From: Rhizoctonia solani | Taxonomy: Eukaryota; Basidiomycota; Agaricomycetes; Cantharellales; Ceratobasidiaceae | Length of the DNA: 64,000 nt | Reading direction: 5' to 3' | Assembly: GCF_016906535.1 (NCBI RefSeq) | Contig: NC_057384.1 | Span: forward strand, 868,001 to 932,000 | In this document: one piece after another, positions 5,262-64,000 of the stretch | How the letters are laid out: every line of letters begins with the position of its first letter | Position numbering within the stretch: the first letter of the stretch is position 1 | The notes under the pieces: generated by a model | Told to the model about the DNA's origin: nothing | Databases searched by the model: none | What the model saw: only the letters and a program-made list of their open reading frames with translations | Position numbers and translations under genes: made by a program

Positions 5262-5263
5262 TT

Positions 5264-5274: not shown

Positions 5275-5579
5275 GCTTACCTATACCCAGTATATATGCA
5301 TGTATGTACATATGTGTTGCCAATAGGGGATGTAGGGATGACTAATGCCCCTACATCAATGATGCACAACATATTGTCCCAACAACACAACTTCAGATTA
5401 CCATTTATGGTAACCCACCTTCCTAATTAGGAAAGAGACATGACTTGAAGAAGACTTTCAAGACAAATGGAGACCAAGCAATTTAGACTTGCCAAAAATG
5501 GCAATCCCCTTTCCAAATTAGGAAAGAAGATGAAATGGATGGATGACTAAGCTTAGTCAGCTGAACTATGATGAGTCAG

Positions 5580-6705: not shown

Positions 6706-7049
6706 GTCAGCAATCAAGCCACATAATCAACTCAGTGATGACAAATCAAGTATGACTAAGCATAATGACAAATGCTTAGTCAGTAATCAACTCACATGAT
6801 CAACTAATGAATGACAAATCACTTACAACCAAGCATGATGACAAATGCTTAGTCAGCAAGTATTCAACTCAGCCACAAGTCACATGATGATGCCTGTGCT
6901 CAATCTCTGGGTAAAACCAGGCTGCATTGGGGAATAAGACTACCATATAAGGAAATTGGATGAGTCATACTTATATTATGGCTCTGCATGCCAAGAGTAT
7001 GAGTCATACTTAAGCAGTGTTCCACATGATCATGTGCTAAAAATAGAAC

Positions 7050-7609: not shown

Positions 7610-7781
7610 AGAACCAACTCTGCCAAGACCTCACCTCACTGGTGTATTTCTTGGCATCCAACTGGCTAATCAAACACTGTCACATGGTTCTTTGACTCAT
7701 ACTGCTTCTGAGGCTGTGCTATGGGTCCAAGAGGCTGTGCTCCTATTTGAAATATTTATATAGACCCAAGTGAAGCCCAGG

Positions 7782-7827
7782 TATATATAGGGGCAGAACA
7801 AGCTGCTTAGAAAGCCAGCTTGTTTTC
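7782..7827 (+). promoter_or_regulatory. Leader promoter and PBS complement of C/D
   Basis: TATATATA at 7782-7789 is followed 35 nt on by AGCTTGTTTTC (7817-7827), the exact complement of the PBS at 5264. In families A and B the same TATA-to-complement spacing (34 nt) marks the RNA 5' end in the LTR. Here it lies in the internal leader. Confidence 0.55.
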
Positions 7828-8587
7828 CCTTGTCTTACAACTTATAGGGACAAGCAGGTGCTGCTACACCTGAAAAGAGCAACTGAGTGATCAATTTCAA
7901 ATTCAACTATCAACAACTGTCAATAAAGGGTCTCCACTGACCCTTCTATCTGATTTGTGATAAGAGTACTATCAGAGTCTTCTCATCACTTGGACCCTAG
8001 GTGTCCATTACTTTACTTGCAAACAGCTAAAGACCTCTTTGTGGGTTGCACTATTTTTGCTCTGATTAATAGAAGCTCTTGAGTATTCTATTTGAATAAG
8101 ATAATGAGGTATCATTGACTATAAATTAAGATAGCCTTATCTTAAAGAACCACTTCTTTGAAACACATGTGTTAAGAGTTGTGTAAGTACAGGAGTAAGA
8201 AAGAATTATTATATACAAGATGTATATGGGAATAACTAAGAATTAGTATTAAGAATCAGAGTATATGCGCAGAATATATGCACAATATAGGCTAGGTTAT
8301 CAGGAATAACAACTCCTAACAAATAGTCTAGCAACTATGAAGTGCAGGTGGTTGGTTATGTATAGTACCTTAGACTAATGTTACTTAAGCCTAAGTGACT
8401 AAGGGTATGTATACTTAAGGTCTCTGGGATAGTACCTTAAGTAAGAGGGTTATCTGACTAATGTACAGGATTTATAGGATTTGCCTAATAAGTATAGGAC
8501 TTATATATGCTTAAGTAAGACTTAAGGCTTATGGGGTTTACCTAAAATATATCTAGGATTTATGAGATATTGTAGATAAAGCTATCT

Positions 8588-14830: not shown

Positions 14831-15949
14831 TATCTACAATATAAGGGGTATGGTGGATTGAAACACTATCACTCAATCACAACAATCCTTACAGTATTGT
14901 TGCACTATACTCAATGTTGAATTCAACAACTGTGACAGTCAAGGGGCACAGGGTTGCAGTAAGTACACTAATAGGTTACCCTGTGTCTGTTGGGACTGGC
15001 CTATGGTCTTAGTGCGCCAAATAACCTCCTATGCTATTTACAGTGAGTCAATCACTAAAGTAAATGTGCAGATAAGCTGTTAAAGGCTTGTGTGTATATG
15101 TCAATATACAAGAGTAAAAGTAGGATAATGGGATGCATTAGAAGCGTCTTCACAGGGTCCTTTTATACCCTGAGAAGGCGCACAAACAAGTATATACATG
15201 ATTGATACCAAGAGGGGGTACAGGAGGTACATGTGGCAACTGAAACACTTGAGGGAGCCAATACTTTGGTACATAGTAAACAAACAACAGTTCCTAATAT
15301 TTGCCCCAAGGCAATGTTTGCCCCAAGGCAGTATTTACCTATGTGGGTCCTTAGATGTCCCAAGGCTAAATGTTTCATCCTTGGAGTAAACAGTTCCAAA
15401 GGTAGGATACTGCTGCATTGGGTAGTTACAGTAAATGGGGCATAACTCTGCCAAATGCTGTCCGTTTTGGGAGTTTGACCCAGCGTTCTGGAGTGCACAA
15501 ACATGCGCACCTAGGCGCAAGCAATTTGGCAGTATGGGATGCCCGGGTGATGGAGAAAAGGCGCATTTAGTGCGTCGGCGCTTAAGGGTTGATTAAGCGC
15601 TGGAGCACTTGCCTATGCAACAGGGGGGACCCTGAATATTTCTGTGTGTAGCCACAAGATAGAATCTTGCATAATAAATACTACAAACAAGAGAAATATT
15701 ACTTGTTACTGTTTACCTACTCAGCTGAATTTATATATATTTAAATGAGTGAGAAAACAGCATATATGCAAAAGGCATCGCATATTGAGGGTATTCCTGA
15801 GGTTTGTAGGTTTTGTAAAGGTCACTATTGGATAGAGGGACCTTGAGAACCTTAGTTCGCATCTTTATCTCATTTGTTTACTGTAAGATTACTAGTGTAA
15901 TTAATAAAATAAGTACAGATTGAAGAAGTAATGTCATATCCATAACAAC
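14831..15949. other. AT-rich leader or unrecognised LTR before family C gag
   Basis: Continuation of the sequence interrupted by the B element. No ORF with motifs. A minus-strand TATA-like box (GGGTATAAAAGG, about 15160-15172) resembles that of the F LTR, so an unrecognised minus-oriented LTR may be present. I could not find matching ends or target duplications. Confidence 0.4.
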
Positions 15950-16190
15950 ATGTCTGCCACTCCTGAGCCTGACAGTGCCCCAGGGGGTGCAGATATTAGA
16001 AGAAACCCTACTAGAACCAGTCAATCTTCAACCTTTGATGAAGGACCAGCAAGAAGGAGGGGAATCTCAGGAACCTCATCTGTAGGAACCTCTAGAGCCT
16101 CTTCTCCTACCTATGCAGCGAGGGGACCATCTGTCATGCCAGGATCAATGCCTGGCTCTGAGGATGAAACTACTGTGATTGAGGACAATA
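15950..16190 (+). pseudogene. Family C gag, 5' part
   Basis: About 80 residues from an ATG, Ser/Thr/Pro/Arg-rich and probably disordered, cut at codon EDN by a palindromic insertion. Beyond the palindrome (17762) the frame resumes in phase, so the start of gag is here and not at the Met at 17785. Confidence 0.8.
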
Positions 16191-17759: not shown

Positions 17760-19512
17760 TAGTACAGTAGAACACCCTAGCATTGTGATTACTGACACTT
17801 CTAGCTTAGAACCCATAGTAGTGCAGGATACACCTCCTAGACTACCAGCCACTCATATCCAGCCTTCCAACAGATCTTCTGTCACTATAGAAGACATTAC
17901 TGCCCAGGAAGGGGATACCACTCTTAGGAGACACAACCTTACTGGTACCACCATAAGACAAGCAAGAACAAGAAGCACTTCCAATATGGGGTATCATGAA
18001 ACAGCCCTACAGAGCATTCCTGCATCCATTACATCTAGTAGGAGAACAAGCCCTGTAGAGCTTGACCAAAGGCTGGGGGAACCCACACTGGGTCACCAGC
18101 CAACAGCATTAATTGCACACCAACCACAACCCCAGATACCTATGCAGGGGTTACCTATATCCAGGGCTGCTATAGCTGACTATGAGGCCAAGAGCCATCA
18201 GGTGATGCCTCAAGTCAGGGTAGAAGCAGCCATCAGCAGTGCCATCAATGATATCAAAGATGACATTGCCTTGAAGATGGGCCCTATCAAATACATACAT
18301 GCTAATAGCTCTGAAAGTGCAGCTGCCCTGAGACAAGTGGGCAGAGATGTAGCAGACCTCAACCTACAGACCAACTATATAAGAAGGAGCTTAGGTGAAG
18401 TCTCTGAGGAGCAAAGAGCAGCTCAAACAGCCCATAACCACCTTGTAAATCAAGTAGAGGAGCTACAAGACAAGGTGGATGCATTGCCTCAACTCTTTCA
18501 AGATGTGGAATCCAGAATAGCTACCATGGAGGAAAGACTTTTGGAAGCAATTTTGGAGGTAGACAGGAAGATAGGACTACTTAAAGAACCAGAAACAGAA
18601 AGAACTGAGACGGAAAGCAACAGTGAGGAAGAGGATGGTGATAATCTTCACCTCTCTAGACAGAGACAGTCCTCTCCAGCCAGAAGAACCTCCATTCCAA
18701 AGGAAGCCAGACTTAAACAGCCAAATGTCTTCAATGGAAAAAGAGGTACTGAAGCTGAAACATTCATCATGAAGGTGGAAATATATTTCAAAGAGTACCC
18801 TGGTACCTTCACTGATGAAAGAAAGATCAGGGCCACCTTAACCAATATGGGAGAAGGTGAACCAGTCAAATGGGCCAGTCCCCTGATGCAGAAACATCTC
18901 AGTGATGAACCTCATGAGTACCTGACTTCCTGGAATGCATTCAAAGCAGCATTCCTACTCAACTTCAGTGATCCATCCAAAAGAGATAGGGCTATTAGGG
19001 AGATCAATAGCCTAAAACAAACTGGATCAGCACAAATTTATGCCAGTCAATTCTGAATTATAAAAGAAGATCTTGATTGGGATGAGAAAGCTCTCATTGA
19101 CACCTTCAAAAAGGGACTCAAGATTAACCTGCAGTCAGAATTGATTTGCATGAAGATCACTACTCCTAAAATTGACAACTACTCTTTGGAGCAAATCATT
19201 GAAGTAGCCATCAGGACTGATGACACTCTTCAACAGGCAGCTTCAATCAGGGACACTACTACACCACCTAGTATCCTAAAGAAAGGAAGGACCAACAACT
19301 ATAGACCTACAGAGAGGTTCCCTGCAGAGACTTTTCTGAAGAGAAGCCAGGCAGGTGAATGCCCAAAATGTGGGAGCAAGACTCACAAGATAAAACAATG
19401 CCCTGAGAAATTCTACAAACCTGACCCAGTACTGGGAAAGATAGGGACAGAGAAAAGGATAGAGGAGGATTGTGAATCCATAGAGTCAAAAAATTACCAA
19501 GGGCCTCTGTAA
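17760..19512 (+). pseudogene. Family C gag, main part
   Basis: Continues gag in frame. Coiled-coil-like stretch at 18300-18590 (ADLNLQTNYIRRSLGEVSEEQRA onwards), then an acidic linker, a capsid-like domain at about 18700-19130 (KQPNVFNGKRGTEAETFIMKVEIYF; WNAFKAAFLLNFSDPSKRDRAI) and a CCHC knuckle CPKCGSKTHKIKQC near 19357-19398. A single in-frame TGA at 19054-19056 breaks it, and no other stop intervenes before 19141, where the frame continues. The TGA is most simply a CGA with C to T change. Ends at TAA 19510-19512 beside a slippery site. Confidence 0.85.
19488..19494 (+). promoter_or_regulatory. -1 frameshift heptamer, family C
   Basis: A AAA AAT in gag phase (XXXYYYZ) lies five codons before the gag stop. 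The -1 frame is open from here into pol at 19515. Confidence 0.55.
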
Positions 19513-19514
19513 CC

Positions 19515-22500
19515 ATGTCAGAGAGTCCCCTAGAGCCCTCAGAGGATAGTGATGAGGTGTATATTATGAAAGGAACAAATGATACTCTACCCACTTACAC
19601 TTCCATTGAGGGAATCATGGACCCCATCAAAACGCTTATTGACTCTGGCTCTTCACAAAACTTCATGGATATTACCTTTGCTAGGAACCTCAAGATTCCT
19701 CTGATTGAACTTCACTCCCCTAGGACAGTCATAGCCATTGATGGAAAAGAAGTAGAAGAAAAAATTTGATATAAGGCCATTCCAAACCTTATCATTGAAG
19801 GAAGAACCTTCAGACAAACCTTTTATGCTATGCCACTAGGAGATACTCCACTCATTCTAGGTCTCTCTTGGCTAAGAGAAGCCAACCCTACCATCTGCTG
19901 GAGGGATTTCTCATTAAGCTACCAGGATGAGGAACCTATGAAAGGAAAACTGGCAGAGATAGAGGAACTCCCTTCTGAGATAGAAGACTTCCAAGATGTA
20001 TTCTCTGAAGAGCTCTTTAAACAACTACCTCAACACAGATCCTTTGATTGCTCCATTAACTTCAAGGAAGGGAGTGAACTTCCAAAACCTGCTAAAGCCT
20101 ATCCCATGTCTCCAGCAGAGTCCAAAGCCATGAAAGAATATATGGAGAAGGAACTATTGGATGGGAAAATTGAACCAAGTCACTCTCCTATTGCTTCCCC
20201 ATGCTTCTTTGTGAGGAAAGCTGATGGGGGACTGAGACTAGTAGTGGACTATAGGAAGATCAATGGCATCATCATCACAGATCAATTCCCCATGCCCTTG
20301 CAGTCTGACCTTCTAGAAAAGGTCAAGGATGCCAAGATTTTCTCCAAACTTGATCTGAAATCAGGATACAATAACATCAGAATCAAGGCAGGGGAGGAAT
20401 GGAAAACTGCTTTCAGGACAAAGGATGGTCTCTTTCAATATTGTGTGATGCCTTTTGGATTGAGAAATGCCCCTTGAATCTTCCAGAGGTTGATGAATCA
20501 TATTTTGTATGACATGACTGATGTGTCAGTGATTATCTGCTTAGATGAGATACTGATCTACTCTAGGAATAGGGAAGAACACACCAAACATCTCAGGGAA
20601 GTACTTAGAAGAATCAGGGACAACAACCTGTACCTGAAACTTGCAAAGTGCCTATTCTACACCACTGAAGTAACCTATATTGGCATTGTGATTACCCCAG
20701 AAGGTATCTCCATGGAGAAAGAAAAGATCAAGGCAGTACAGGAATGGAAGGAGCCTAAGACTGTCAAGCAACTGCAGTCTTTCATAGGATTTGCCAACTT
20801 CTACAGACGCTTTATCAAGGACTTCAGCACTATTGTAAAACCCCTAACTCTACTTACCAGGCAGGAAGTAAAGTGGAAGTGGGGTGAAGCTGAACAGCAA
20901 GCCTTTGATAGAGTCAAGGAGGAAATTGGAAAGGACCCAGTACTTATTCACCCTGATGCCCAGAAACCTTACTTCTTACAAACTGATGCCTCTGGAGTAG
21001 CTATGGGTGCTGTGCTTAGCCAAAGACACACTGATGGCTACCTACACCCTATTGCCTTCCTATCCAAGAGCTTTGATGATCCCCAGACTAACTATGACAC
21101 ACATGACAAGGAGCTACTAGCCATCATTACTTCCCTGGAACATTGGAGACTTTTCCTGGAAGGCACAACTGAGCCCATCACTGTCAACACTGATCACAAA
21201 AACCTGGAATACTGGAAGACAGTCCACACCTTCAACAGGCAACATGCAAGGTGGTACCAAATCCTGGCACCCTTCAACTTCAACATTGTCTACAGACCTG
21301 GAAAAATATCTGAGAAGCCTGATGCCCTATCAAGAAGACCTGATCACTTGGACATTCCTAACAAGGAACAGATAATGATTGATCCTAAACACTTCCTGGT
21401 AATGAAGGCAGAGGTAACAACAGACATTATTTCTCAGATCAGAGAGGCTCAGGAGGAAGATGAGTCAATTCAAACACTGATTGCTACTGTCAAACACAAG
21501 GAAGAACTACCTACTAGTGTAGCAAAACAGTTTGCTAAATACCAATGGAAAGAAGAGCTCCTATGGTATGAGGAAAGAATCTTTGTACCAGACAGCAAGG
21601 CTATCAGACTTGAACTCCTAGAACAGTACCATGACTCCCCCATTGCTGGCCATCAAGGGCAAGCACATACTTTGGAACTCCTGTCAAGAGATTATTACTG
21701 GCCAGGAATGAAAGCCCAAGTAAACAGATATGTGGAATCATGTGAAAACTGCCAAAGGAGTAAAGGCCACAAACATACAGTCCCCATAAGACCACTACCT
21801 ATTCCAAGCAGGCCCTGGGAGGATATTGCCTATGACATGATAGTCAAACTCCCACTATCCAATGGATATGACAGTATTCTAGTGGTAATAGACTGCTTTT
21901 CAAAGCAGGCTCACTTTATTCCTTGCATAGATAAAACCAATGCTAAGGAAATGGCTGAAATCTTTATCAAGGAAGTATGGAAACTGCATGGTACCCCTAG
22001 GACAACAATCTCAGATAGAGGCAGGGTATTCAACAAGGAATTCCAAAGGGCCTTATATGAGAAATTGGGAATAAAGCCTCTATACTCTACTGCCTATCAC
22101 CCTGAGACAGATGGCCTTGCAGAAAGAACAAACCAATGGTTGGAGGGATTCTTGCGCAGCTACTGCAACTATGCACAAGATGATTGGGCAAAATGGCTAC
22201 CTATAGCTGAGTTCTGTCACAACAATCAAGTCAACTCTGCAACTGGCAAATCAGCCTTTGAGACAGTGTATGGGATGCACCCAAGATGGAATATTGCACC
22301 TACCACCTCCAATGTACCACATGCAGAAGACATGACCAAACAAATGGAACTAATTTGGGATGAAGTCAAGGCTTCCATGGAGTTCCACAAAGCAAAGGAA
22401 AAGGCACCCAGACAGGAATACAAAGTAGGAGATAAAGTGTGGCTAATGACCACCAATATCCAAACAAAGAGACCTGCAAAGAAACTGGACAACAGAAAAG

Positions 22501-22961
22501 CTGGACCCTTCACTATCACTGAAAAGATCTCATCCCATGCTTACAGACTAGACCTTCCTAACAACATAAAAATCCACAATCTCTTCCATCTCAATCTCCT
22601 GGCTCCCTTCAAAGAGGACACTGACTTCCACAGAAGACAAGTGAAACCTCCTCCCATTATAACAGAAGAAGGAGAAGAGGAGTATGAAGTGGAAAAGATT
22701 GTGGCATGGAAAAAGGACAAGGAGGGACTGAGATATCAGGTCAGATGGAAAGGATATGATGAGCTAGAGGATACCATGGAGAGGGCTGAAAAGATTGCCC
22801 AACTGCCTGAGATCATGGAGAGATTCAAAAAGGAGTTCCCTAATGGGCCTCTACCTCCTGAAATCAAAACCTTAGGAAAGAAAAAGAGGACAATAAAGGG
22901 GAAACCTGCTTATATGAGTGTGTCTCACTCTAACAGATATGCACCTCTTCAAGTCCCCTAA
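19515..22961 (+). pseudogene. Family C pol polyprotein (protease, RT, RNase H, integrase, chromodomain)
   Basis: One frame throughout, broken only by TGA at 19767-19769 and 20475-20477, both at contexts expected to be CGA. Protease: LIDSGSSQNFMD (about 19640). RT: FFVRKADGGLRLVVDYRKIN, KLDLKSGYNNIRI, then VIICLDEILIYS, where the YxDD active site reads CLDE. RNase H: LQTDASGVAMGAVLSQ, THDKELLAI, NTDHKNLEYW. Integrase: HHCC zinc site (YHDSPIAGH, CENCQ), DDE core with Asp in VVIDCFSK, Asp in TISDRGR and Glu in LAERTNQW. GPY/F (KAGPFTI) and a C-terminal chromodomain (EEEYEVEKI, RYQVRWKGYDELEDTMERAE) in which the usual EDTWEP Trp is Met. Three nonsense codons in gag-pol and the altered RT site make it non-functional, though integrase looks intact. 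Confidence 0.93.
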
Positions 22962-22964
22962 AGA

Positions 22965-22983
22965 GGTGCAAAAGGGGGGGCAA
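22965..22983 (+). promoter_or_regulatory. Polypurine tract of family C
   Basis: GCAAAAGGGGGGGGCAA directly precedes the 3' LTR; plus-strand DNA synthesis primer. It matches the tract before the D 3' LTR at 62944. Confidence 0.8.
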
Positions 22984-23438
22984 TGTCATGAGCCATGCCC
23001 CTATTGTGCCCTTTATTCACACACCAGGGCACTCATGGTACACACTACGGCCACCGGAAACCCGCATATACTCGCACTTATGCACTCAGAACCCCCAGGT
23101 TCCCACATATAAGAGACTTATGGTCAACATGGCTGGACTTAGTGATATTCTCTAAGTCTAGGTCACATGACCTCCCCCCCTCCAGTCCTTTATCAAATAC
23201 TATACTAAACTACTACAGATTTGAGGTGGGGGGGGATGACATAATCTCTTCTATAATAATATAATATTCAGACTTTGCCCACAGGCTCCCTTAACATTGG
23301 CCTGCAGCAAGGGGGGCAGGGGGAGTGCAATGTCCCCCAGCAACTTATATTATTAATATATCACTGTGCATCATATATACTATATATCTTTGACAGTGGA
23401 TATATATGGTAATAACCCTCCAGATATGGGTTATGACA
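22984..23438 (+). repeat. Family C 3' LTR
   Basis: 455 bp, TGTCATGAGCC...GGGTTATGACA, the same LTR family as the ends of element D at 57293. TATA-like ATATATAAGAG near 23105. The right flank GGATA begins D gag sequence, so C inserted into a D copy there. Confidence 0.9.
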
Positions 23439-24150
23439 GGATAACTTTGAACATGGCCCTTGCATGGAGCTGACATCTCCAATACAAGGCATGGAACAGG
23501 GACATCAGGAAGGAGTAGGAATTACCCCTTCTGAACAGGCTGACCAACCAGATATGGAACCATTTCAACTTGCTACTGCTAGGATCCTAGACCCTAGGCA
23601 TGAGAATCCAGGGAATAACACACCCTTGGAGGACCCTGTTGCTAGGGAAAAGGAAACCCCTTTGGTAGATGAGGCAACCAGGAATAAGACAGTGAAGGAT
23701 TTTATTGAAGACTTCTTTGCCAAATTCCCTGAGGAGACTCAACCACCAAAAACTGAGGCAAACAAGAAATGGATTACTAATGACCACCTTACAAGTACCC
23801 AAAAGGTCTATGGATTCTTAATGGAACTAATAATGGGAGTCAAAAGGTTGGAGAAACATATTGACAACCATCTAAAGATGGAACAGGAAATGCTGGATCA
23901 TGGTATTTCTCAGGAAGTAATTGACCAATTGGATAAAGTACTTCCCTTGTCTGCCCTCTGGGAGGCCAAGAACAACAGTGAATCCAATTCCAACAAATCA
24001 GGGTCTACTGAAATCCAATGTGAGGTGTGTGGGAGAACTAACCACTCTACTGAAGAACATAGGAAATCATGTGATTCTGGGGCAAAGGGCAATAAAGGGT
24101 CTGATAAGCGGAAAGATAAGGGTCCTGGCAACCCAGGGTATAAAGGAAGG
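23439..24150 (+). pseudogene. Family D gag fragment, copy 1
   Basis: Matches residues about 65 onward of the D Gag at 58922 (MELTSP.QGMEQGHQEG). It has a knuckle-like CEVCGRTNHSTEEH (C-x2-C-x4-H-x4-H, with His in place of the last Cys of a CCHC). Upstream codons are missing because family C inserted at 23438. The frame is cut at 24150 by an A solo LTR. Confidence 0.85.
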
Positions 24151-24720
24151 TGTTGTAGACACACGTGATACCAGGGAATTTATTCACCTTTTCTCAAATT
24201 TAAACAAAACCTAACGGACTACATTTTCAATCACATGACTTTGGCACTTATATCATATGCTAAGCGCCAAGCCATGTCCCCATCCATGCTTAATCAGCAT
24301 ACATAGCCACCTCCACCTATGATGTCATCATGACATGTCAGTGACACATATGCATGAGTAAGGCCAACTGCAGAGCAGGGTTCTTATTGGATTAGTTATT
24401 TGACATCATGTATTTGTAATTAGCTCTTGTATAGAATATATAAGGAGGCTAACTGACCATGGTAACACCCAGGTCAATTACCTCTTGTCACACTCTGATC
24501 ATTGTACAAGGCCTTACAGCCAGAACACCACTTAGACACATGCCTTAAGCATTGCACCCACTGTACTTATGTAGCCTGCCATTGCCCCTAAGGCCCTGGC
24601 CACCATAGCTTAGTATTTAGACATTGTAGGGTAGAACTCACCGCCTTAAGTGGTACACTTGTATTAGTCACACAGCCACAAGTGCCTGCGCCCTTGACAT
24701 CCTTACAGATGTCTAGGACA
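24151..24720 (+). mobile_element. Family A solo LTR
   Basis: 570 bp, TGTTGTAGACAC...TAGGACA, with GAAGG duplicated at 24146-24150 and 24721-24725. The uninterrupted site is seen at 59790 in the other D copy. Confidence 0.92.
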
Positions 24721-25560
24721 GAAGGCATCCCATGCCTGGGAAGTCATCACAAACCACCACTGTCACCACTACCTCTTTATCCATTCCCATTACTAAGACA
24801 TCATGCCTGCCATCAGAACAGAGACCAGGATCTCCAAGGCAACTGGGGATGCCACCTCTTACCACCTTGACAGATCCAGTGAGCACAGGACCAAGTTCCC
24901 TTGGTCCCAGGACAACCTGGATCAATGGGCACCCCCAGATCCATCCATGGGCTGGGACATGGGGAATGATCAACCCCCTATCACCAACATCTATGACTGG
25001 CATAAGGTCATCACAAGATGTGACTCTTTCCAACAATCCAAGGCTTATGCCAAACTACTTGATCCCTAAGCAACCCTTGATTACATACCAATGGGTCAGC
25101 AATGGAAGTGCTACTGGATTGGAAGAACCCTATGCTGTCTAATTAGGGGATACCTCTGCTGGGTTGGCAGTGAGCCACCAAAACAACCTAAACTGATTCA
25201 AAGCACCAAGTTATTTGTGTGTAGAGGTAATGTGGGTGCCTCTGTGGAGGATGTAGTGAGGGCCCCAGTGCTAAAGCACACAAGGAAGTTGGCAGAGTGG
25301 CATCTAGACATTGAGGAAATTGATCCTGAATGGTGGATACCAATCTCAACAGTAAGGGAATGGCTGGCTGCAGAAATTGAAAACTGGAAAAACAAATTAC
25401 CATCAGGCTTAGGTGGCTATGTAGACAACCTCACCCTTGAAGATGTCTATTACATGATCCTGGAATGCAAAATGAGCATAGAGGATCTACATGACTGGCT
25501 CAAACAATGGGCCATGCAAGCAGCTCAGAATGACCTGAGCAGGAGTATATCCAACCTAGC
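24721..25560 (+). pseudogene. Family D gag end and ORF2, copy 1
   Basis: Continues D gag and then D ORF2 in the -1 frame (WWIPISTVREWLAAEIENWKNKL, LHDWLKQWAMQAAQND). Relative to the complete copy, gag ends early at a TAA (CAA in copy 2), the shift heptamer is CCTAAAC instead of CCCAAAC, and an extra stop lies at 25067-25069. It ends where a B LTR begins at 25561. Confidence 0.85.
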
Positions 25561-53096: not shown

Positions 53097-54366
53097 TGTT
53101 GTACACCACTGTAAGGTGGGTATGCGCTGGTGAAGGCGGGCGCTTGTGGCCGTAACTACTACACTAGCTTAAGTAATCTAACTACTAAAGGCTATAAACT
53201 ATCTACTAAGTCACTTATGGTGACCGCTAACTATCTACTGTTGACGCAAAGGGGCTGGAGGCCTGGAGGTGTGGTGAGTGAGGTGAAGGGGTGGTGCGTC
53301 AGCAGAACTTCTGGGGGCTGGCTACTTAGCTGGCTGGGTCCTCCTCAATGGATATGAGACAAGGTAAAATCAACTTGGTGTCCCCAAGCAATTTCCCTGC
53401 TGTATACACTAAGCAGCAAAATATTGCAACCCCCATGAGGAATAGCTGGAGGCCAAGCAACACACTTTCAGGTATAGGTTTATATACAAGATCTGTAGAC
53501 CTGTATGAGAGCTAGGTGATGTCAAAAAACAGGGTGAAAATACCAATCTTGGTGTGCTAAACAGGGAGGATAAGAAACAGGGGTTTTTCCAGCCTGCCAA
53601 CCAGTAAATATCTTGCTCAGAGCTGCTAATGAAACTTGAAGAGAAACAAAATCTGAGTAGTATAGCACTTTCAAGCGTGCAGATCTGTGCGCTTGTTGTG
53701 GAGATATGCGCCTTCAGATCTAGGGAGGGTTACTAGGAAACCTCCCATTTTCAGCAATTTCCAATCAGTCTCCTAGTAACCCCTCCTACATTGGAAGGCG
53801 CATATCTCCACAACAAGCGCACAGATCTGCACGCTTGAAAGTGCTATACTACTCAGATTTTGTTTCTCTTCAAGTTTCATTAGCAGCTCTGAGCAAGATA
53901 TTTACTGGTTGGCAGGCTGGAAAAACCCCTGTTTCTTATCCTCCCTGTTTAGCACACCAAGATTGGTATTTTCACCCTGTTTTTTGACATCACCTAGCTC
54001 TCATACAGGTCTACAGATCTTGTATATAAACCTATACCTGAAAGTGTGTTGCTTGGCCTCCAGCTATTCCTCATGGGGGTTGCAATATTTTTGCTGCTTA
54101 GTGTATATAGACATTGGTGCGCTATTTACATGGTCTGTGCGCGTGAGAAAAGAAGTACATGATGGAAATAAGAAGTGTGCTGCGGGCTGCGCAGAAGCGT
54201 GGATTTCTCCTAAGCGCCCTTGGCACGGCATCTTGGCGTGGCATCTTGGCATAGTAAGCGCCAAGATCACGTGATTGAAAAACAAAAGATAATGAGTCCA
54301 TAGAAAATAGTAAAAATAACAGAAAAATTAGGAGAATCCAATGGTATAATTTAGGAGGTTGTAACA
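53097..54366 (-). repeat. Family B 3' LTR with a palindrome in its TATA box
   Basis: Starts TGTTGTACACC and ends GTTGTAACA on the plus strand. About 570 bp of LTR once the insertion 53407-54103 is removed. It belongs to the B element running off the right end of the window; the left flank CTACA is one half of its target duplication. Confidence 0.85.
53407..54103. mobile_element. 0.7-kb foldback element
   Basis: Two arms of about 330 bp, almost perfect reverse complements, around a centre near 53737-53775. Ends CACTAAGCAGC/GCTGCTTAGTG and TA duplication (53405-53406, 54104-54105). It splits TATATATA of the LTR. The outer 20 bp resemble those of the palindrome at 16191. The mirrored short ORFs in both arms are products of symmetry. 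Confidence 0.88.
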
Positions 54367-56181: not shown

Positions 56182-57292
56182 GACATTAGCTGGTATGTTG
56201 GATGGATTCATTACCAGGCTTCTTCCATAGACTAACTCAAAGGGGGATTTCCCTGTGGAAGCATGTTTTGCATTGTTGTATGCATATTCCGCTAGGGGTA
56301 ACCATGTGGCCCAATTTGAGTGGTCTGCGGATACATAGGACCAGAGGTAAAATTCTATGAACTGATTTACTCTCTCTGTCTGGCCATCTGATTCCAGGTG
56401 GTAAGCCAATGAAAAGGACAGTTTGATTCCTAGCCGTTGGTAAAGAGCCCTGAGGAATTTGCCTGTGAACATGGTTCCTCAATCCAATATGGTTTTGACT
56501 GGTAGCCCATGGAGTTTCCAAACATGGGTAACAAACAAGTCTGCCAATCCCTTTGCTGTGACCTTTTTTGAAGTAGGAATGAAATGGCCAAATTTGGAAA
56601 AGGAATCTATGACAACTAAGATTGCGTCAAACCCTTGTGACTTAGGGAAGCCTGTAATGAAATCATAGGAAATTGTGTGGAAAGGAAATGGGGGGACTTC
56701 CAGTGGCTTCAGGGCAATGACTGGCGCATGAGGACAACAGTTAGCTTGGCATGTTGGGCAGCATTCCACCCATTCCTTGGCTGAGGACTTCATCCCTGGC
56801 CACCAATAATTCCTGCCAAGTAGTTCTAAGGTTTGCTGTTGACCTGGGTGTCCTGCCAAAGGTGAATTGTGGAATTCCCTTAGTAGCCGCTCTTTCAAGG
56901 CTTCTGAGTCTGGGACAACTAGTTTTCTGCGGTAACATAGTAAATCTTCTTCCCAGTCATAGTCCCTATAGGCCTTGCAAATAGAAGGGGGTGCGTTGTC
57001 TACATCCTCAGTAAGGAATTTGATAATTGGTTCCAGTGATGGATCTTCCTTGAGCTTGGTGCAAATATCCAAGACAACTTCTAATTCCTCTTCCAATGAA
57101 TTTGCAAAAACTTCTGATGGAAGCATGACTTCTGGTTCTGATGGGAGATCTACATAATCTGATCTTCTAGAAAGGGCGTCTGGCTTTCCTGATTGTTTAC
57201 CTGGGCAATAGTGGATTTCAAAGTTGAAGTTGCTCAGGAAAATCCGCCATTGGGCATGTCTGCAGTTGAAAGTTTGCGCCTGCATCCAATAT
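56182..57292 (-). pseudogene. Family B integrase (copy B7)
   Basis: 57285-56479 reads from the RNase H end (RHAQWRIFLSNFNFEI) through the integrase zinc site (FHNSPLAGHPGQQ, CPTCQ) and core (VVIDSFSKFGHF, TILD), where a stop interrupts near 56480. 56472-56182 continues (YHLESDGQTERVN with catalytic Glu). The integrase His-rich motif YHPES reads YHLES here. The D element at 57293 separates this part from the RT at 63407. Confidence 0.9.
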
Positions 57293-57754
57293 TGTCATGA
57301 CCCACTCCATTCTTTCCATGAGTCCTGACCTTGTCAAGCCTCCAACACACTCATGTTGCACACCAACATGACCGCAAGCACGCATATACTCGCACATATG
57401 CACTCAGAACCTCCAGGTTCCCATATATAAGAGACTTATGGTTGACATGGCTGGACTAAGTGATATTCTCTAAGTCCAGGTCACATGACCTCCCCCCCTC
57501 CAGTCCTTTATCAAATACTATACTGAACTACTACGGATTTGAGGTGGGGGGGATGACATAATCTCTTCTATAATAATATAATATTCAGACCTTGCCCGCA
57601 GGCTCCCTTAACATTGGCCTGCGGCTAGGGGGGCGGGGGGAGTGCAACGTCCCCCAGCAACTTATATTATTAATATATCACTGTGCATCATATATATATA
57701 TATCTTGACAGTGGATATATATGGTAATAACCCCTCCAGATATGGGTTATGACA
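57293..57754 (+). repeat. Family D 5' LTR
   Basis: TGTCATGACCC...GGGTTATGACA, with ATATATAAGAG TATA-like box near 57424 and AGGTCACATGACCT inverted block. Confidence 0.92.
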
Positions 57755-57756
57755 TT

Positions 57757-57767
57757 GAAATCAAGCT
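57757..57767 (+). promoter_or_regulatory. Family D primer-binding site
   Basis: GAAATCAAGCT, 2 nt after the LTR. Complementary to AGCTTGATTTC at 58547-58557 in the leader. In the other copy both sites carry the compensating A/T change. Confidence 0.7.
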
Positions 57768-58511
57768 GCTTACCTATACCCAGTATATATATACATATAT
57801 ATGTGTATATGTATTGCCTATAGGGGATGTAGGGATGACTAATGCCTCTACATCAATGATGCACAACATATTGTCCCAACAACACGACTTCAGATTACCA
57901 TTTATGGTAACCCACCTTCCTAATTAGGAAAGAGACATAACTTGAAGAAGACTTTCAAGACAAATAGAGACTAAGCAACCTAGACTTACCAAAAATGGCA
58001 ATCCCCTTTCCAGATTAGGAAAGAAGATGAAATGGATGGATGACTAAGCTTAGTCAGCTGAACTCTGATGAGTCAGCAACCAGATCACATGATCAACTCA
58101 TTGATGACAAATCAAGTATGACTAAGCATGATGACAAATGCTTAGTCATCAAGTACTACCTGCACTGCCACAATCACATGGTGATGGCTGTGCTTGATCT
58201 CTGGGTAAAACCGGGCTGGATTGGGGAATAGAATTACCATATAAGGAAATTGGATGAGTCATACTTATATTGTGGCTGTGCATGCCAAGAGTATGAGTCA
58301 TACTTAAGCGGTGTTCCACGTGATCATGTGCTAAAAATAGAACCAACTCCGCCAAGACCTCACCTCACCGGTGTATTTCTTGGCATCTGATTGGCTAATC
58401 AAGCACTGCCACATGGTTCTTTGACTCATACTGCTTCTTGAGGCTGTGCTATGGCTCTGAGAGGCTGTGCTCCTATTTGAAATATGTATATAGACCCAAG
58501 TGATGCCCAGG

Positions 58512-58557
58512 TATATATAGGGGTGGAACAAGCTGCTTAGAAAGCCAGCTTGATTTC
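58512..58557 (+). promoter_or_regulatory. Leader promoter of D
   Basis: TATATATA at 58512-58519, then the PBS complement starting 35 nt later at 58547. The segment from about 58320 resembles a U3/R region although it lies outside the LTR. Confidence 0.55.
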
Positions 58558-58921
58558 CCTTGTCTTACAACCTATAGGGACAAGCAGGTGTTGCTACACC
58601 TCAAAAAGAGCAACTGCGTGATTTATTTGAAATTCAACTATCAACAACTGTCAACAAAGGATCTCCACTGATCCTTCTATCTGATCAGTGATAAGAAGTA
58701 CTGTCAGAGTCTTCTCATCACTAGGACCCTAGGTGTCCACTGCTTTACTTGCAAATAGCTAAAGACTTCCTCTGTGGGTTGCGCTATTTTGCCTCTTGAT
58801 AACTAAGACTTCTTGTCTTCTACTTGCAAATAGCTAAAGACTTCCTTTGTGGGTTGCACTATTTTGCTTCTTACTAACTGAGACTTCTTGTCTTCTTCTT
58901 GCAAATAGCTAAAGACTTCCT

Positions 58922-60262
58922 TTGTGGGTTGCGCTATTTGGCTTCTTACTGACTAAGATAGGTATATCTTGGAACTTGCAAGTAATAGAGACTATTATAG
59001 TGCTCTATCTGACCTTTTGCAACAATATGGGATTTCATAAGATGCAACCTAGGCGTGTATTTGGGACTTTGCCCCAATTGGATAACCCTGAACATGATCA
59101 TGTCATGGAGCTGACATCTCCTATGCAAGGCATGGAACAGGGTCATCAGGAAGGAGTAGGAATTACCCCTTCTAAACAGGCTGACCAACTGGATATGGAA
59201 CCATTTCAACTTGCCACAGCTAGAATCCTAGACCCTAGGCATGAGAATCCAGGGAATAACACGCCCTTGGAGGACCCTGCCACCAGGGAAAAGGACACCC
59301 CTTTGGTAAATGAGGCAACCAGGAATAAGACAGTGAAGGATTTTATTGAAGACTTCTTTGCCAAATTCCCTGAGGAAACTCAACCACCAAAAACTGAGGC
59401 AAACAGGAAATGGATTACTAATGACCACCTTACAAGTACCCAAAAGGTCTATGGATTCTTAATGGAACTAATAATGGGAGTCAAAAGGTTGGAGAAACAT
59501 ATTGACAACCATCTAAAGATGGAACAGGAAATGCTGGATCAAGGTATTTCTCAGGAAGTGATTGATCAATTGGATAAAATACTTCCCTTGTCTTCCCTCT
59601 GGGAGGCTGAGAACTACAGTGAATCCAATTCCAATAAATCAGGGTCTACTGAAATCCAATGTGAGGTGTGTGGGAGAACAAACTACTCTACTGAAGAACA
59701 TAGGAAATCACGTGACCCTAGGGCAAAGGGCAATAAAGGGTCTGACAAGCGGAAAGATAAGGGTCCTGGCAACCCAGGGTATAAAGGAAGGCATCCCATG
59801 CCTGGGAAGTCATCTCAAACCACCACTGGCACCACTACTTTCTTATCTATCCCCATTACTAAGACATCATGCCTGCCATCAGAACAGAGACCAGGATCTC
59901 CAAGGCCACTGGAGATGCCACCTCTTACCACCTTGACAGATCCAGTGAGCACAGGACCAAGTTCCCTTGGTCCCAGGACAACCTGGATCAATGGGCAACC
60001 CCAGATCCATCCATGGGCTGGGACATGGGGAATGATCAACCCCCTATCACCAACATCTATGACTGGCATAAGGTCATCACAAGATGTGACTCCTTCCAAC
60101 AATCCAAGGCTTATGCCAAACTACTTGATCCCTCAGCAACCCTTGATTACATACCAATGGGTCAACAATGGAAATGCTACTGGATTGGAAGAACCCTATG
60201 CTGTCCAATCAGGGGATACCTCCGCTGGGTTGGCAGTGAGCCACCAAAACAACCCAAACTAA
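58922..60262 (+). CDS. Family D ORF1, Gag-like protein
   Basis: Up to 446 residues; the likely start is the Met near 59027 (MGFHKMQPRRVFG), as the preceding residues overlap leader repeats. Acidic and polar N-terminus, helical region (TVKDFIEDFFAKFPEE, VYGFLMELIMGVKRLEKHIDNHLKMEQEML), then a knuckle-like CEVCGRTNYSTEEH with one His replaced by Tyr in this copy (His in copy 1), a basic Lys-rich stretch, and a Pro/Thr/Ser-rich tail. The layout (helical domain, zinc knuckle, basic tail) suggests Gag, but no family could be named. It ends at TAA directly after CCCAAAC. Confidence 0.75.
   Translation: MWVALFGFLLTKIGISWNLQVIETIIVLYLTFCNNMGFHKMQPRRVFGTLPQLDNPEHDHVMELTSPMQGMEQGHQEGVGITPSKQADQLDMEPFQLATARILDPRHENPGNNTPLEDPATREKDTPLVNEATRNKTVKDFIEDFFAKFPEETQPPKTEANRKWITNDHLTSTQKVYGFLMELIMGVKRLEKHIDNHLKMEQEMLDQGISQEVIDQLDKILPLSSLWEAENYSESNSNKSGSTEIQCEVCGRTNYSTEEHRKSRDPRAKGNKGSDKRKDKGPGNPGYKGRHPMPGKSSQTTTGTTTFLSIPITKTSCLPSEQRPGSPRPLEMPPLTTLTDPVSTGPSSLGPRTTWINGQPQIHPWAGTWGMINPLSPTSMTGIRSSQDVTPSNNPRLMPNYLIPQQPLITYQWVNNGNATGLEEPYAVQSGDTSAGLAVSHQNNPN
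60253..60259 (+). promoter_or_regulatory. -1 frameshift heptamer, family D
   Basis: C CCA AAC in ORF1 phase, a canonical XXXYYYZ form, immediately followed by the TAA stop. The -1 frame is open for another 155 codons. Confidence 0.6.
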
Positions 60263-60726
60263 TGCAAAGCACCAAGTTCTTTGTGTGTAGAGGTAATGTG
60301 GGTGCCTCTGTGGAGGATGTAGTGAGGGCCCCAGTGCTAAAGCACACAAGGAAGTTGGCAGAGTGGCATCTAGACATTGAGGAAATTGATCCTGAATGGT
60401 GGATACCAATCTCAACAGTAAGGGAATGGCTGGCTGCGGAAATTGAAAACTGGAAAAACAAACTGCCATCAGGCTTAGGTGGCTATGTGGACAACCTCAC
60501 TCCTGAGGATGTCTATTACATGATCCTAGAACGCGAAATGAGCATAGAGGATCTACATGACTGGCTCAAACAATGGGCCATGCAAGCAGCTCAGAATGAT
60601 CTGAGCAGAAGTATATCTAACTTAGCAATCCATGAACTAAGTGATGAAGGAGGACATGAGTCTGACCTTGAAAGTAACAAGGCCATGAACAAATGGAATC
60701 CCTTGGATTATGCTGATGGAATGTGA
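60260..60726 (+). CDS. Family D ORF2, unknown protein fused to Gag by -1 shift
   Basis: About 155 residues after the shift point. Trp-rich and acidic (WHLDIEEIDPEWWIPISTVREWLAAEIENWKNKL, then LTPEDVYYMILEREMSIEDLHDWLKQW), mostly helical by appearance, with an acidic tail (ELSDEGGHESDLESNK). It is conserved in D copy 1 (25200-25560) with few changes, whereas the long upstream overlap of this frame with ORF1 (from 59869) is broken by a stop in copy 1, supporting the frameshift model. I recognise no family. Confidence 0.65.
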
Positions 60727-60937
60727 TGAAATATGTAACATTCCATTAGTTACCTTACATTCTTCTCTTCTTCCTTTTCTTCCAATGTTTGATCCTTCTT
60801 AGTAACCATGTGTCTTATCTGATCTTCCAAGAATCATTTTATCTCTAAGTGCCAAATGGAGGAAGAGAAAGGATGCTTTTATTAAGACAGGAACCAGAAC
60901 AGACAAGACAAGGAAAGACAAGACAAAGAGGAACTAT

Positions 60938-62549
60938 CTAATACAGCTTATCACCAATATACACAAAGGTACAATTGGTGTCAATCCAATTCTTGCCATC
61001 AACTGTGGCATAACTACAATCAGCAAATACAGAAGGCTTAGAATTGGAACATATAACAGTAGAGCGCCCCCATTGGCAATGGCGCTCTGATCTGTAACTA
61101 GTGCGGAAATTGAAATCTTCCTGCACCCACATCTTCAAAGGAACCTTGGACCAATCCATATCATCCAGCACTGCATACTGAACCATAGGATGGTCACTAA
61201 ACTCATCAGAGTTAAGGTTCTGCCTGAACCTAATGTGGTGCCCCCAAGAACAAGCAAGGGCTGACTTCCCTGTCTCTGAGGGACCCCACAAAACAAGGAT
61301 CTTACCACAATCAGATTCAGGGTCACGTTCCAATATATTGGAAGTAACCCACTCCTGAACACCAGGTGGCAGGTTGACTGTAGCCCTGGTAACAACTTGT
61401 CAGCATTCTCTTCTATCATGAAAAAGAAGAGGACTTACTTCTTAAGGGCCTTGGGTTCACATACACCCTGAGGAAGGGCACCCTTGTCCCTGTAGAAGTA
61501 ACCAGTGAAAGCCTTGAGGTTGTTATACCCCATGGCCATATCACAAGGTTGGCGCTCCTTTAAGCAACCAAAAAATCCCTCAGCATCCTCTGCCTCCATG
61601 GCATAGGCAAAATCTTCATTACGCTGTAATAAGAGAACCATCAGCTGAGAACCTCTTTCCATAACCAGGGACTTACATTGGTCTTAGCCTTCAACCCTGC
61701 AGGGCACTGGCCTAATAAGAACTCCTCTGGGCAAACCTTCCCTTATCATCCCTAAGTACAAGAAGACGCTCATGAGGGCGCACTCCCTTATACTTCCATA
61801 GGTTCAGGGCCTCTGATGAGATGAGGGTCCTGGCCCAAACAATAACATGGCAATGCCAATCAGGCTGCCATTCACCTTCCCTCAGGTCATGGGACTCAGT
61901 GACTCCCATGGCATACTCCAAAAGGGAATTTTCCCCACTCCTCAGAGTAAGAAGATGATCTACAAGACTTGAATAATCTTCAGTAAAAGTAAAAACATCC
62001 TGGGTATAACTACTTACTCTTTTATAACCTCATGGCAAGAGGTTTCCCTTGTCTCCTCACTCTTGACATAACAAGCATAAGTGAGAAGATAACACTTCCC
62101 CTTACAACAAAAGTGCCTTCCTTCTTGGGGAAGAACCCCAATGTCCTCCTGCCCTTCAGGGGCTGCAGGAACAATAGATTCCCTTGACTCCAATGGAGCC
62201 ATGGATGGGACAATGGAGCTTCCTCCATTTTCTAAGTCTTCCCTGTTGCTGGGCACTGCTAACCAACGCCTGGACAAGGGGGGAAGCACGCAGGATATCT
62301 GTGACTTTACAGTTATCTTTTAGTAAAAGGATTTTGCTATCAAACAAGACCACTTACTCCTTCTTCTTGGGAGTCCAGATCCAACCTTCTTTTGAGAGTC
62401 CTGGGAGTGAGCTGTGACAGAGGCAGCTCTTGACTCTGCCACACAGTAGATGCAATCTGGGAGACATAGGGGGTGGCATCCAACAGCCCTGAAGGCTGTG
62501 AATCCAAGACTGTGGAGGGAGTGGTGCTGGCAGTTGGGCATTGAGACAT
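60938..62549 (-). CDS. Rep-like HUH endonuclease / SF3 helicase gene, antisense in element D
   Basis: Minus-strand pieces carry, in order, the signature motifs of Rep proteins of CRESS-DNA viruses: motif I-like LLTYA (about 62088-62074), HUH motif HCHVIV (about 61856-61839), a motif III-like YFYRDKG with the nicking Tyr (about 61503-61480), Walker A GPSETGKS (61285-61262), Walker B VLDDMD (about 61174-61151) and motif C ICSNSKPS (about 61057-61031). Pieces are separated by short stretches starting GTAAGT (for example near 62019, 61658 and 61441), suggesting fungal introns. ATG at 62549 and a TATAAAG box at about 62592-62586 could start it. One junction near 61710-61735 does not read cleanly and may be a frameshift. 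A viral-derived or plasmid-derived gene, resident in the retroelement. Exact exons are unresolved. Confidence 0.75.
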
Positions 62550-62944
62550 GTTGATGACTTATCCCACCTCCCACTGCCCTCTTCTTTATACCATGGGGGC
62601 CAAGAGACTGAGTCAGAGGGAAATGACTTACTATACCAATCCTTTCTGAACAATAAAATGGCACCATACAGTAACCAAGCAACCATGAAATATGTTGCTA
62701 ACCAGGAACTTCCAGAAGACTTGAGAAGTTGCTTTACAAAGACTGTAGTGTGGGAACTTTCCCACAGGAAGAAAACAACATTCCAACAAGGATCACATGA
62801 CCAAGAACAAGTCAGGTGACCTCAGAACAACTCATTGCACAATTGTACTTAGGAGAACTTGACACCTAATAAGATATCTATCCAGATATCTTTTCTAATG
62901 GCACAAGTTCATGTCCCCTAAACTATGTGCAAAAGGGGGGGCAA
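62550..62944 (+). other. 3' untranslated region and polypurine tract of D
   Basis: No ORF of note. It ends GTGCAAAAGGGGGGGGCAA (about 62927-62944), matching the tract of family C, as does the GTCCCCTAAA just before it. Confidence 0.75.
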
Positions 62945-63406
62945 TGTCATGACCCACTCCATTCTTTCCATGAGTCCTGACCTTGTCAAGCCTCCAACAC
63001 ACTCGTGTTGCACACCAACATGACCGCAAGCACGCATATACTCGCACATATGCACTCAGAACCTCCAGGTTCCCATATATAAGAGACTTATGGTCGACAT
63101 GGCTGGACTTAGTGATATTCTCTAAGTCCAGGTCACATGACCTCCCCCCCTCCAGTCCTTTATCAAATACTATACTAAACTACTACGGATTTGAGGTGGG
63201 GGGGATGACATAATCTCTTCTATAATATAATATTCAGACCTTGCCCGCAGGCTCCCTTAACATTGGCCTGCGGCTAGGGGGGTGGGGGGAGTGCAACGTC
63301 CCCCAGCAACTTATATTATTAATATATCACTGTGCATCATATATACTATATATATCTTGACAGTGGATATATATGGTAATAACCCCTCCAGATATGGGTT
63401 ATGACA
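62945..63406 (+). repeat. Family D 3' LTR
   Basis: 462 bp, few substitutions and short AT-repeat length differences relative to 57293-57754. Confidence 0.92.
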
Positions 63407-64000
63407 AATATTCCAGGTTCCAATGATCTGTGAACACCTGTATGGGTCTATCTGTTGCTTCTAAGAAGATCCGCCACTCTTCCAGTGCCTTGATAATTGC
63501 CAGCAGCTCCTTGTTGTGCATGTCATAGTTTGCTTTGGCGCCAGAGAAGGATTTGGACATGTATGCAACTGGGTGGAGACGGTTATCCTCTCCCTGTTGG
63601 CTCAGGATGGCTCCCATGGCTACTCCTGAAGCGTCTGTCTCTAGGTAGTAGGGGAGGTTTGGGTTGGAGTGGATAAGAACCGGGGACTTGGTAACTAAGG
63701 ATTTCAGTTCCTGGAACGCAACTTCTTTGGGATCACCCCATGACCAAGGGGTTTCCTTCTTTGTCAGGTTGTGCAGGGGGCATGCAACAGAGCTGAAATT
63801 GGGAATGAACCGGCGGAGGTAATTGACAAACCCTAGGAAGGCCTGGACCTGCTTGACTGTCTTAGGTGTGGGCCACGTTGTAATGGCTTCAATCTTCTTC
63901 TGGTCCATGGAGAAGCCAGCAGGGGAGATGACAATACCAAGGTAGTCAACTGTAGTGACATGGAAGTGACACTTGGATAGTTTGCAGAACAATTGATTCT
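63407..64000 (-). pseudogene. Family B RT end and RNase H (copy B7), runs off the window
   Basis: Reads MFCKLSKCHFHVTTVDYLGIVIS (RT thumb), GFVNYLRRFIPNFSSVACPL and RNase H YYLETDASGVAMGAIL, MHNKELLAI, VFTDHWNLEY, with the break at EYW exactly at the D insertion. No stop is seen in this part. The RT active site lies beyond the window end. Confidence 0.9.

What the first reader, a model, noticed from the sequence alone, without database searches (positions are those of the whole stretch)
60938..62549. CRESS-type Rep gene carried antisense inside an LTR retroelement
All expected HUH and SF3-helicase motifs occur in order on the minus strand between D ORF2 and the D polypurine tract, with GTAAGT-type introns and its own TATA box. 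Rep relics in fungal genomes are known, but one riding in a complete LTR element with perfect target duplications would let the element spread it and could supply a nuclease/helicase. Catalytic motifs look intact.
Basis: partly seen in the sequence, partly recalled or inferred. Interest (0 to 1): 0.85.

Follow-up and report, generated by a model that had tools for sequence, protein, structure and literature searches.

The report
Viral Rep gene inside a retrotransposon
A jumping element in a plant-pathogenic fungus carries, on its reverse strand, a replication gene related to those of geminivirus-like DNA viruses; many copies of the element carry the gene and it shows signs of selection, although the copy in this window is broken.

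Summary
Element D (57293-63406; 462-bp LTRs, 5-bp target duplication AATAT) carries on its minus strand a 5-exon gene for a divergent geminivirus/genomovirus-like Rep (HUH endonuclease plus SF3 helicase). It is no private insertion. Of 23 D elements found by their ORF1/2 sequence in this genome (Rhizoctonia solani), 19 carry Rep, one is cut within it and three end before it; 8 of the 19 keep the whole gene model open (487 aa). Between Rep lineages (dS above 0.2) dN/dS is 0.12-0.23, and 0.01-0.08 in the helicase half at its deepest splits. Changes shared by several copies are more often synonymous than singletons (P 0.004). D lacks gag-pol; it shares R-U5, leader and polypurine tract with an open Ty3/gypsy chromovirus, so it is probably moved in trans. 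Most likely Rep acts on the element's own DNA; that step is inferred, and no canonical CRESS origin was found. Antisense extra genes in LTR elements and Rep-carrying DNA transposons are known; my searches showed no LTR element with a Rep.

The parts
57288..57292 (.). target-site duplication AATAT, left
   Evidence: same 5 bases at 63407-63411
57293..57754 (+). 5' LTR (TGTCAT...ATGACA)
   Evidence: repeat families D1, D3, D4; LTR alignment
57755..58800 (+). primer-binding end and leader, 94-96% identical to the gypsy element in L039
58746..58970 (+). three 75-bp tandem repeats at the junction between shared leader and D-specific part
   Evidence: family D2
59027..60262 (+). ORF1 (411 aa), no Pfam match above cut-off; dN/dS 0.19-0.61 in pairs with 25 or more changes
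59869..60726 (+). ORF2 (285 aa), overlaps ORF1 in another frame; ends in place without inner stops in 11 of 13 copies examined
60878..60883 (-). AATAAA downstream of Rep; in 18 of 19 D copies (not L012)
60938..61385 (-). Rep exon 5 (SF3 helicase: Walker A GPSETGKSA, B LDDM, C ICSN)
61439..61623 (-). Rep exon 4 (geminivirus Rep central domain-like)
61677..61967 (-). Rep exon 3 (HUH motif II HCHVIVWA); 67 nt shorter than the reference copy at about 61729, motif III missing, frame lost
62018..62298 (-). Rep exon 2 (HUH motif I YLLTYA)
62358..62549 (-). Rep exon 1 (start codon)
62585..62590 (-). TATAAA, 41 nt before the Rep ATG in 15 of 19 D copies (in L023 the stretch taken ended too early to tell)
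62745..62783 (.). 39-bp block invariant in the 16 copies aligned, holds palindrome TGTGGGAA-CT-TTCCCACA (62749-62766); candidate Rep or promoter site
62931..62944 (+). polypurine tract
   Evidence: shared with L039
62945..63406 (+). 3' LTR (5 substitutions in 459 compared sites against the 5' LTR)
63407..63411 (.). target-site duplication AATAT, right

Best explanation
D is a non-autonomous Ty3/gypsy LTR element of Rhizoctonia solani in which gag-pol has been replaced by ORF1, ORF2 and a reverse-strand, intron-bearing gene for a geminivirus/genomovirus-like Rep. Shown: the anatomy, the multi-copy association, and selection on the Rep protein. Inferred: D RNA is packaged and copied by the proteins of a chromovirus partner (represented by L039) with which it shares R-U5, leader and polypurine tract. 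The Rep mRNA is made from its own TATA promoter on the other strand, so its four introns lie antisense in the genomic RNA and survive retrotransposition. Rep then works in the nucleus on D DNA (linear cDNA or circles, possibly at the invariant palindrome upstream of the gene) as a nicking enzyme and helicase that raises the element's copy number or integration success. Selection acts through the elements that transpose; copies decay once inserted, as the window copy has.
For: The 23 Rep matches in the genome are the window, 17 in L009-L025, two in one interrupted D copy (L028), a stub in L030, and two in a gypsy chimera (L026, L027; pol beside the Rep fragment confirmed); none was found outside retroelement sequence. 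Of 23 D elements 19 carry Rep (grouping mine, counts are lower bounds). Gene model whole in 8 of 19, all four introns GT-AG in 16 of 19. Pairs with dS above 0.2: dN/dS 0.12-0.23; helicase half 0.01-0.08 where its dS exceeds 0.27; exon 3 dS 0.72-0.76 against dN 0.07-0.08 in two pairs. Shared changes 123 synonymous to 80 nonsynonymous, singletons 60 to 75, P 0.0038 (120:71 against 63:84, P 0.00028, without duplicate L021). Catalytic motifs kept in more distant R. solani proteins. P0018 passes Gemini_AL1_M, 25.3 bits against a cut-off of 24. BFVD: 17 matches with E up to 0.001; 7 of them bear a name and all 7 are geminivirus or genomovirus Reps. L039 with open gag and pol shares LTR and leader at 93-96%. 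Invariant 39-bp block, permutation P 0.002. LTR pairs differ by 0.4-1.1% in 6 of 7 copies.
Against: No NANTATTAC nonanucleotide on either strand of D. The conserved LTR hairpin also occurs in the partner, which has no Rep, so it is no Rep-specific origin. ORF1 differs far less between copies (dS at most about 0.15) than Rep exon 3 (0.72-0.76), so some Rep sequence came in by recombination and part of the selection may predate D. Among the closest copies L013, L014 and L017 dN/dS is 0.9-1.35. The shared-against-singleton contrast is significant over the gene and in the helicase half, not in the HUH part (P 0.26) or N-terminal tail (P 0.81). The window copy is broken. Gemini_AL1 (PF00799) was matched by none of 17 relatives at E up to 1. 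AlphaFold models are of low confidence (pLDDT 35.8 and 46.1). No expression data. Movement in trans is inferred from shared ends only.
Confidence: 0.5

Rival explanations
1. Rep serves the host or the fungus-virus relation rather than the element: an endogenised Rep kept because it interferes with ssDNA viruses or plasmids, spread as cargo by D.
For: Selection is on the protein; no Rep was found outside retroelement sequence in this genome, so any host benefit would have to come from such copies.
Against: Many decaying copies (8 of 19 whole) and presence in 19 of 23 D elements, the other four being truncated, fit an element function better. No viral relative was found in IMG/VR at the sensitivity.
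Confidence: 0.15
2. Rep is a regulator, not a replicase: it binds its own promoter region as geminivirus Reps do (recalled), and it or the antisense transcript limits D and partner expression.
For: The invariant 39-bp palindromic block lies about 200 bp upstream of the Rep ATG; antisense genes of plant LTR elements are thought to regulate retrotransposition (PMC7264820, passages and section 7).
Against: Strong constraint in the helicase half and retained HUH and Walker motifs are not needed for a mere repressor.
Confidence: 0.15
3. Passenger: Rep was captured by chance and the selection seen took place earlier, in donor lineages outside D.
For: Rep dS far exceeds ORF1 dS; L011 is a mosaic of two Rep lineages (exons 1-3 near L014, exons 4-5 distant); dN/dS near 1 among the youngest copies.
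Against: Less distant D copies still show excess synonymous change (L009 against L020: dS 0.097, dN 0.021), as do changes shared within D (P 0.0038). No donor locus in this genome at the sensitivity.
Confidence: 0.15
4. ORF1-ORF2 and Rep are together a captured CRESS genome (capsid-like genes facing Rep), endogenised inside a gypsy element.
For: Convergent layout ORF1-ORF2 against Rep resembles an opened ambisense CRESS circle (layout recalled); the 12 ORF1 homologues found are all from R. solani, as restricted as Rep.
Against: No Pfam match above cut-off for ORF1, ORF2 or three ORF1 homologues; no nonanucleotide.
Confidence: 0.05

Closest known systems
Antisense additional ORFs (aORF-3R) of LTR retrotransposons: Grande, RIRE2, Retand, PvRetro13; brtn of Boty in Botrytis (PMC7264820, passages and section 7 read; brtn seen only in its reference list)
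   Same: Reverse-strand gene next to the 3' LTR, own promoter reported for Grande, present in all or most copies of some families
   Different: Those proteins are said to show no clear similarity to others, apart from an SMC domain in PvRetro13 and a transposase 28 domain in Retand; here the gene is a recognisable Rep with four introns, and D has no gag-pol
Geminivirus-like transposon of Tuber melanosporum (PMC3198968, section 8 read)
   Same: Fungal geminivirus-like Rep amplified as a repeat (42 genes or remnants)
   Different: Tuber element has 37-bp terminal inverted repeats, two transposase ORFs and an interrupted Rep, no obvious target duplications; D has LTRs, 5-bp duplications, no transposase profile, and several unbroken Reps
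Endogenous geminivirus-like Reps of fungi such as Laccaria and Aspergillus (PMC3198968, passages)
   Same: Rep of the geminivirus type in fungal chromosomes
   Different: The text has no mention of Rhizoctonia or retrotranspos- (term counts)
Rep of Geminiviridae and Genomoviridae
   Same: Motif order (recalled), Gemini_AL1_M match, structural matches
   Different: About 130 residues before motif I, four introns, no recognised origin, about 16% identity in the best structural matches
Non-autonomous LTR elements (LARD, TR-GAG; recalled)
   Same: Shares LTR parts, leader and PPT with an autonomous element but lacks pol
   Different: Carries ORF1, ORF2 and an antisense Rep under selection

Membership tests
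CRESS-type (geminivirus/genomovirus-like) Rep | HUH motifs I, II and III in order | tested here: met
   Met in the 8 whole copies and in several R. solani relatives (some of the predicted proteins lack parts); NOT met in the window copy, where motif III is missing. Motif identities recalled from the family
CRESS-type (geminivirus/genomovirus-like) Rep | SF3 helicase motifs A, B, C | tested here: met
   GPSETGKSA, LDDM, ICSN in the whole copies and in relatives that reach that part
CRESS-type (geminivirus/genomovirus-like) Rep | Match to a curated Rep profile | tested here: met
   Gemini_AL1_M: P0018 25.3 bits, cut-off 24; 8 of 17 relatives at E up to 1. Window pieces and the L014 and L020 proteins stay below cut-off
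CRESS-type (geminivirus/genomovirus-like) Rep | Match to Gemini_AL1 catalytic profile PF00799 | tested here: inconclusive
   No match at E up to 1 in 17 relatives; six-frame genome search also empty, but its 14 controls were empty too
CRESS-type (geminivirus/genomovirus-like) Rep | Rep fold | tested here: inconclusive
CRESS-type (geminivirus/genomovirus-like) Rep | Cognate origin with NANTATTAC nonanucleotide | tested here: not met
   None on either strand of the window D element
CRESS-type (geminivirus/genomovirus-like) Rep | Nicking and helicase activity | not testable with these tools
   needs protein
Non-autonomous Ty3/gypsy LTR element | Paired LTRs and target-site duplication | tested here: met
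   Window AATAT; matching 5-bp duplications in 4 of 7 two-LTR copies, not in L011, L014 (4 of 5 bases), L025
Non-autonomous Ty3/gypsy LTR element | No gag-pol; leader, R-U5 and PPT shared with an autonomous element | tested here: met
   ORF1 and ORF2 without retroelement profile; shared ends with L039, which has gag and pol
Non-autonomous Ty3/gypsy LTR element | Movement in trans by the partner | not testable with these tools
   inferred from shared sequence
LTR element with antisense aORF-3R | Reverse-strand gene next to the 3' LTR in most copies | tested here: met
   19 of 23 elements
LTR element with antisense aORF-3R | The gene lies downstream of gag-pol | tested here: not met
   D has ORF1/ORF2 in place of gag-pol, so it is like this kind, not a full member
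Geminivirus-like DNA transposon (Tuber type) | Terminal inverted repeats and transposase | tested here: not met
   LTRs with 5-bp duplication instead; no transposase profile in ORF1/ORF2
Helitron | RepHel with SF1 helicase, no target duplication (recalled) | tested here: not met
   SF3-type helicase motifs and a 5-bp duplication

The most novel reading that the evidence does not exclude
D is a hybrid mobile element: it spreads by reverse transcription with borrowed machinery and also copies its own DNA in the nucleus with a captured CRESS Rep, nicking at a non-canonical palindromic site (62749-62766) on circular or linear D DNA. It would join retrotransposition and rolling-circle replication in one element.
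Probability: 0.18. Interest if true: 0.92.

Novelty: new variant of a known kind. Interest (0 to 1): 0.7.

Why it matters
Antisense genes of LTR retroelements are a puzzle because their proteins mostly show no clear relatives (PMC7264820). Here one has an identifiable enzymatic origin and shows selection, so its role becomes testable. It also shows a route by which a viral replication gene can spread through a genome, and gives a multi-copy record of its decay and recombination.

Tried and rejected
LTR hairpin CCCGCAGGC...GCCTGCGG as a Rep origin: the stretch folds only moderately better than shuffles (z -2.1), and the hairpin occurs, with matching changes on both arms, in the partner LTR; rejected as Rep-specific. 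CRESS nonanucleotide: none. ORF1/ORF2 as diverged gag-pol of the partner: tblastn best E 0.44. Relatives by the search for related loci in IMG/VR and in GTDB genomes: pattern matches but none confirmed; plasmids: none; PDB by sequence: none; PHROGs: nothing below E 0.02 in four proteins. Six-frame PF00799 and PF08283 searches: empty, controls empty too, so uninformative. A profile search with A3 reached no protein outside Rhizoctonia and Ceratobasidium. ORF1 frame check was started one base late, so its stop counts are void; its length figures show that ORF1 differs in length in 4 of 13 copies. In the shared-against-singleton count L015 and L028 (rearranged) and L026 and L027 (chimera) were dropped beforehand; 17 rows were used. 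VIA-align did not single out a Rep.

Full report
What is there. The window lies in contig 15 of a 40.7-Mb, 16-contig genome. Proteins of Rhizoctonia solani with RhiXN_ tags sit on contigs of the same lengths (for example 2166229, 2432125 and 1669390), so the organism is R. solani. Element D spans 57293-63406, with LTRs of 462 bp that differ at 5 of 459 compared sites and AATAT on both sides. The ORFs on either side carry integrase zinc-finger and RNase H matches, so D sits in the pol of another gypsy element.

The Rep gene. Comparing 19 D copies gives a gene of five exons and four short GT-AG introns on the minus strand. In the window the exons are 62549-62358, 62298-62018, 61967-61677, 61623-61439 and 61385-60938. 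TATAAA lies 41 nt before the ATG in 15 of 19 copies and AATAAA downstream in 18 of 19. The model is whole (1464 nt, 487 aa) in 8 of 19 copies; two of these, L020 and L021, are an inverted duplication 99.94% identical over 5.3 kb, so at most seven are independent. In the window copy exon 3 is 67 nt shorter than in the reference copy and the frame is lost. The missing piece holds a Y-x-x-K stretch at the place expected for HUH motif III (inference from motif order; motifs recalled). So the window copy is dead although the other motifs can still be read.

Is it part of the element? ORF1/ORF2 of D match 31 stretches (a lower bound), which I group into 23 elements. Nineteen hold Rep, whole or damaged; L030 is cut inside Rep; the copies at C2, C9 and window 23439-25560 end before it. 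Of the 23 Rep matches none lies outside retroelement sequence; two (L026, L027) are a Rep fragment abutting gypsy pol in antisense, 98.6% alike over 5.1 kb, so that chimera is present twice. In strain RHS01 the tags of an ORF1 protein (matching a quarter of ORF1) and a Rep protein are consecutive (06479, 06480), and another pair is near (04183, 04186), which suggests the same layout there.

Who moves D? The D LTR end with its primer-binding stretch occurs at 20 places; nine fall in D elements that I know, eleven I did not assign (some may be far ends of interrupted D copies), and two of these were fetched. L039 holds an open gag (Retrotrans_gag 3e-14) and pol (RT, RNase H, integrase zinc finger, chromodomain). 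It shares with D the LTR from about position 56 on, the leader to position 1508 and the PPT with the 3' LTR. Five more copies of its pol are at least 96% alike, one in this window (19563-22958, two stops). D is therefore most simply a non-autonomous partner; movement in trans is inferred.

Selection. For pairs with dS above 0.2 the whole gene has dS 0.20-0.34 and dN 0.039-0.052; in the helicase half dN/dS is 0.01-0.08 where dS exceeds 0.27, 0.05-0.21 at dS 0.08-0.17, and higher among the closest copies. Exon 3 reaches dS 0.72-0.76 with dN 0.07-0.08 in two pairs. Introns differ by up to 47% in the seven pairs examined. Changes found in two or more copies are 123 synonymous and 80 nonsynonymous, singletons 60 and 75 (Fisher P 0.0038; 120:71 against 63:84, P 0.00028, with L021 dropped); by region the contrast is significant only in the helicase half (P 0.0034), not in the N-terminal tail (P 0.81) or HUH part (P 0.26). 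The youngest copies show no constraint (dN/dS 0.9-1.35 among L013, L014 and L017). This is what one expects if elements need Rep to spread and decay after insertion. Against it: Rep differs far more than ORF1 (dS at most about 0.15) and L011 is a mosaic, so recombination has brought in Rep alleles from more distant sources, and part of the constraint may be older.

A possible site. Of 397 columns upstream of Rep 91 vary among 16 copies; the longest invariant run, 39 bp (62745-62783), holds an 8+8 palindrome. Placing the variable columns at random gives such a run in 0.24% of trials, a test that ignores relatedness; a perfect hairpin of that size turns up in 57 of 1000 shuffles of the stretch. 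It is a candidate, no more. D holds no canonical nonanucleotide.

How it probably works. Because Rep is read from the opposite strand, its introns are not removed from the genomic RNA; this explains why they persist (established logic of intron-marked retroelements; recalled). I think Rep most likely acts on the element's own DNA in the nucleus (about 0.5), against host service, regulation or passenger status.

What is known. Antisense additional ORFs next to the 3' LTR are known in plants and, as brtn, in Boty of Botrytis (title in a reference list); their proteins are said to show no clear similarity to others, though an SMC domain (PvRetro13) and a transposase 28 domain (Retand) are named (PMC7264820, passages and section 7). 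A geminivirus-like Rep in a DNA transposon is known from Tuber (PMC3198968, section 8 and passages). A survey of endogenous geminiviral sequences in plants holds neither 'LTR' nor 'retrotranspos-' (PMC7758297, term counts and passages). My searches for a Rep inside an LTR element showed none in the 7 to 20 titles listed by each, finding no paper at all; several of them matched hundreds of papers or more of which I saw only the top of the list, and the library holds only open-licence papers.

Noticed in passing
L026 4229-4877 and L027: A Rep fragment (exons 4-5) fused antisense to gypsy pol, in two near-identical copies on C8 and C16; a protein named 'Retrotransposable element Tf2' (P0031), on a contig of C16's length, contains Rep sequence.
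   Followed up: partly
window 5056-8170, 15944-16185, 17760-23438: An interrupted copy of the probable autonomous partner of D, 88-97% identical to L039, with pol at 19563-22958 (two stops).
   Followed up: partly
window 23439-25560: Remnant of a second D element (ORF1/ORF2 part only), directly abutting an LTR and lacking Rep.
   Followed up: partly
L020 and L021 (C12:237950-251000): Two D copies in inverted arrangement, 99.94% identical over 5.3 kb: a recent palindromic duplication.
   Followed up: partly
window 53418-54091: Large inverted repeat, arms of 324 nt 98% complementary with 26 nt between them.
   Followed up: no
L038 (C4:528200-535700): A further element that shares the D LTR end and primer-binding stretch but has a different interior.
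   Followed up: no
L011: Mosaic Rep: exons 1-3 close to one lineage, exons 4-5 distant from it, as template switching between packaged RNAs would give.
   Followed up: partly
P0040: A protein named 'Vegetative incompatibility protein HET-E-1' matches D ORF1 over 57% of it at 88% identity; perhaps a mis-annotation.
   Followed up: no
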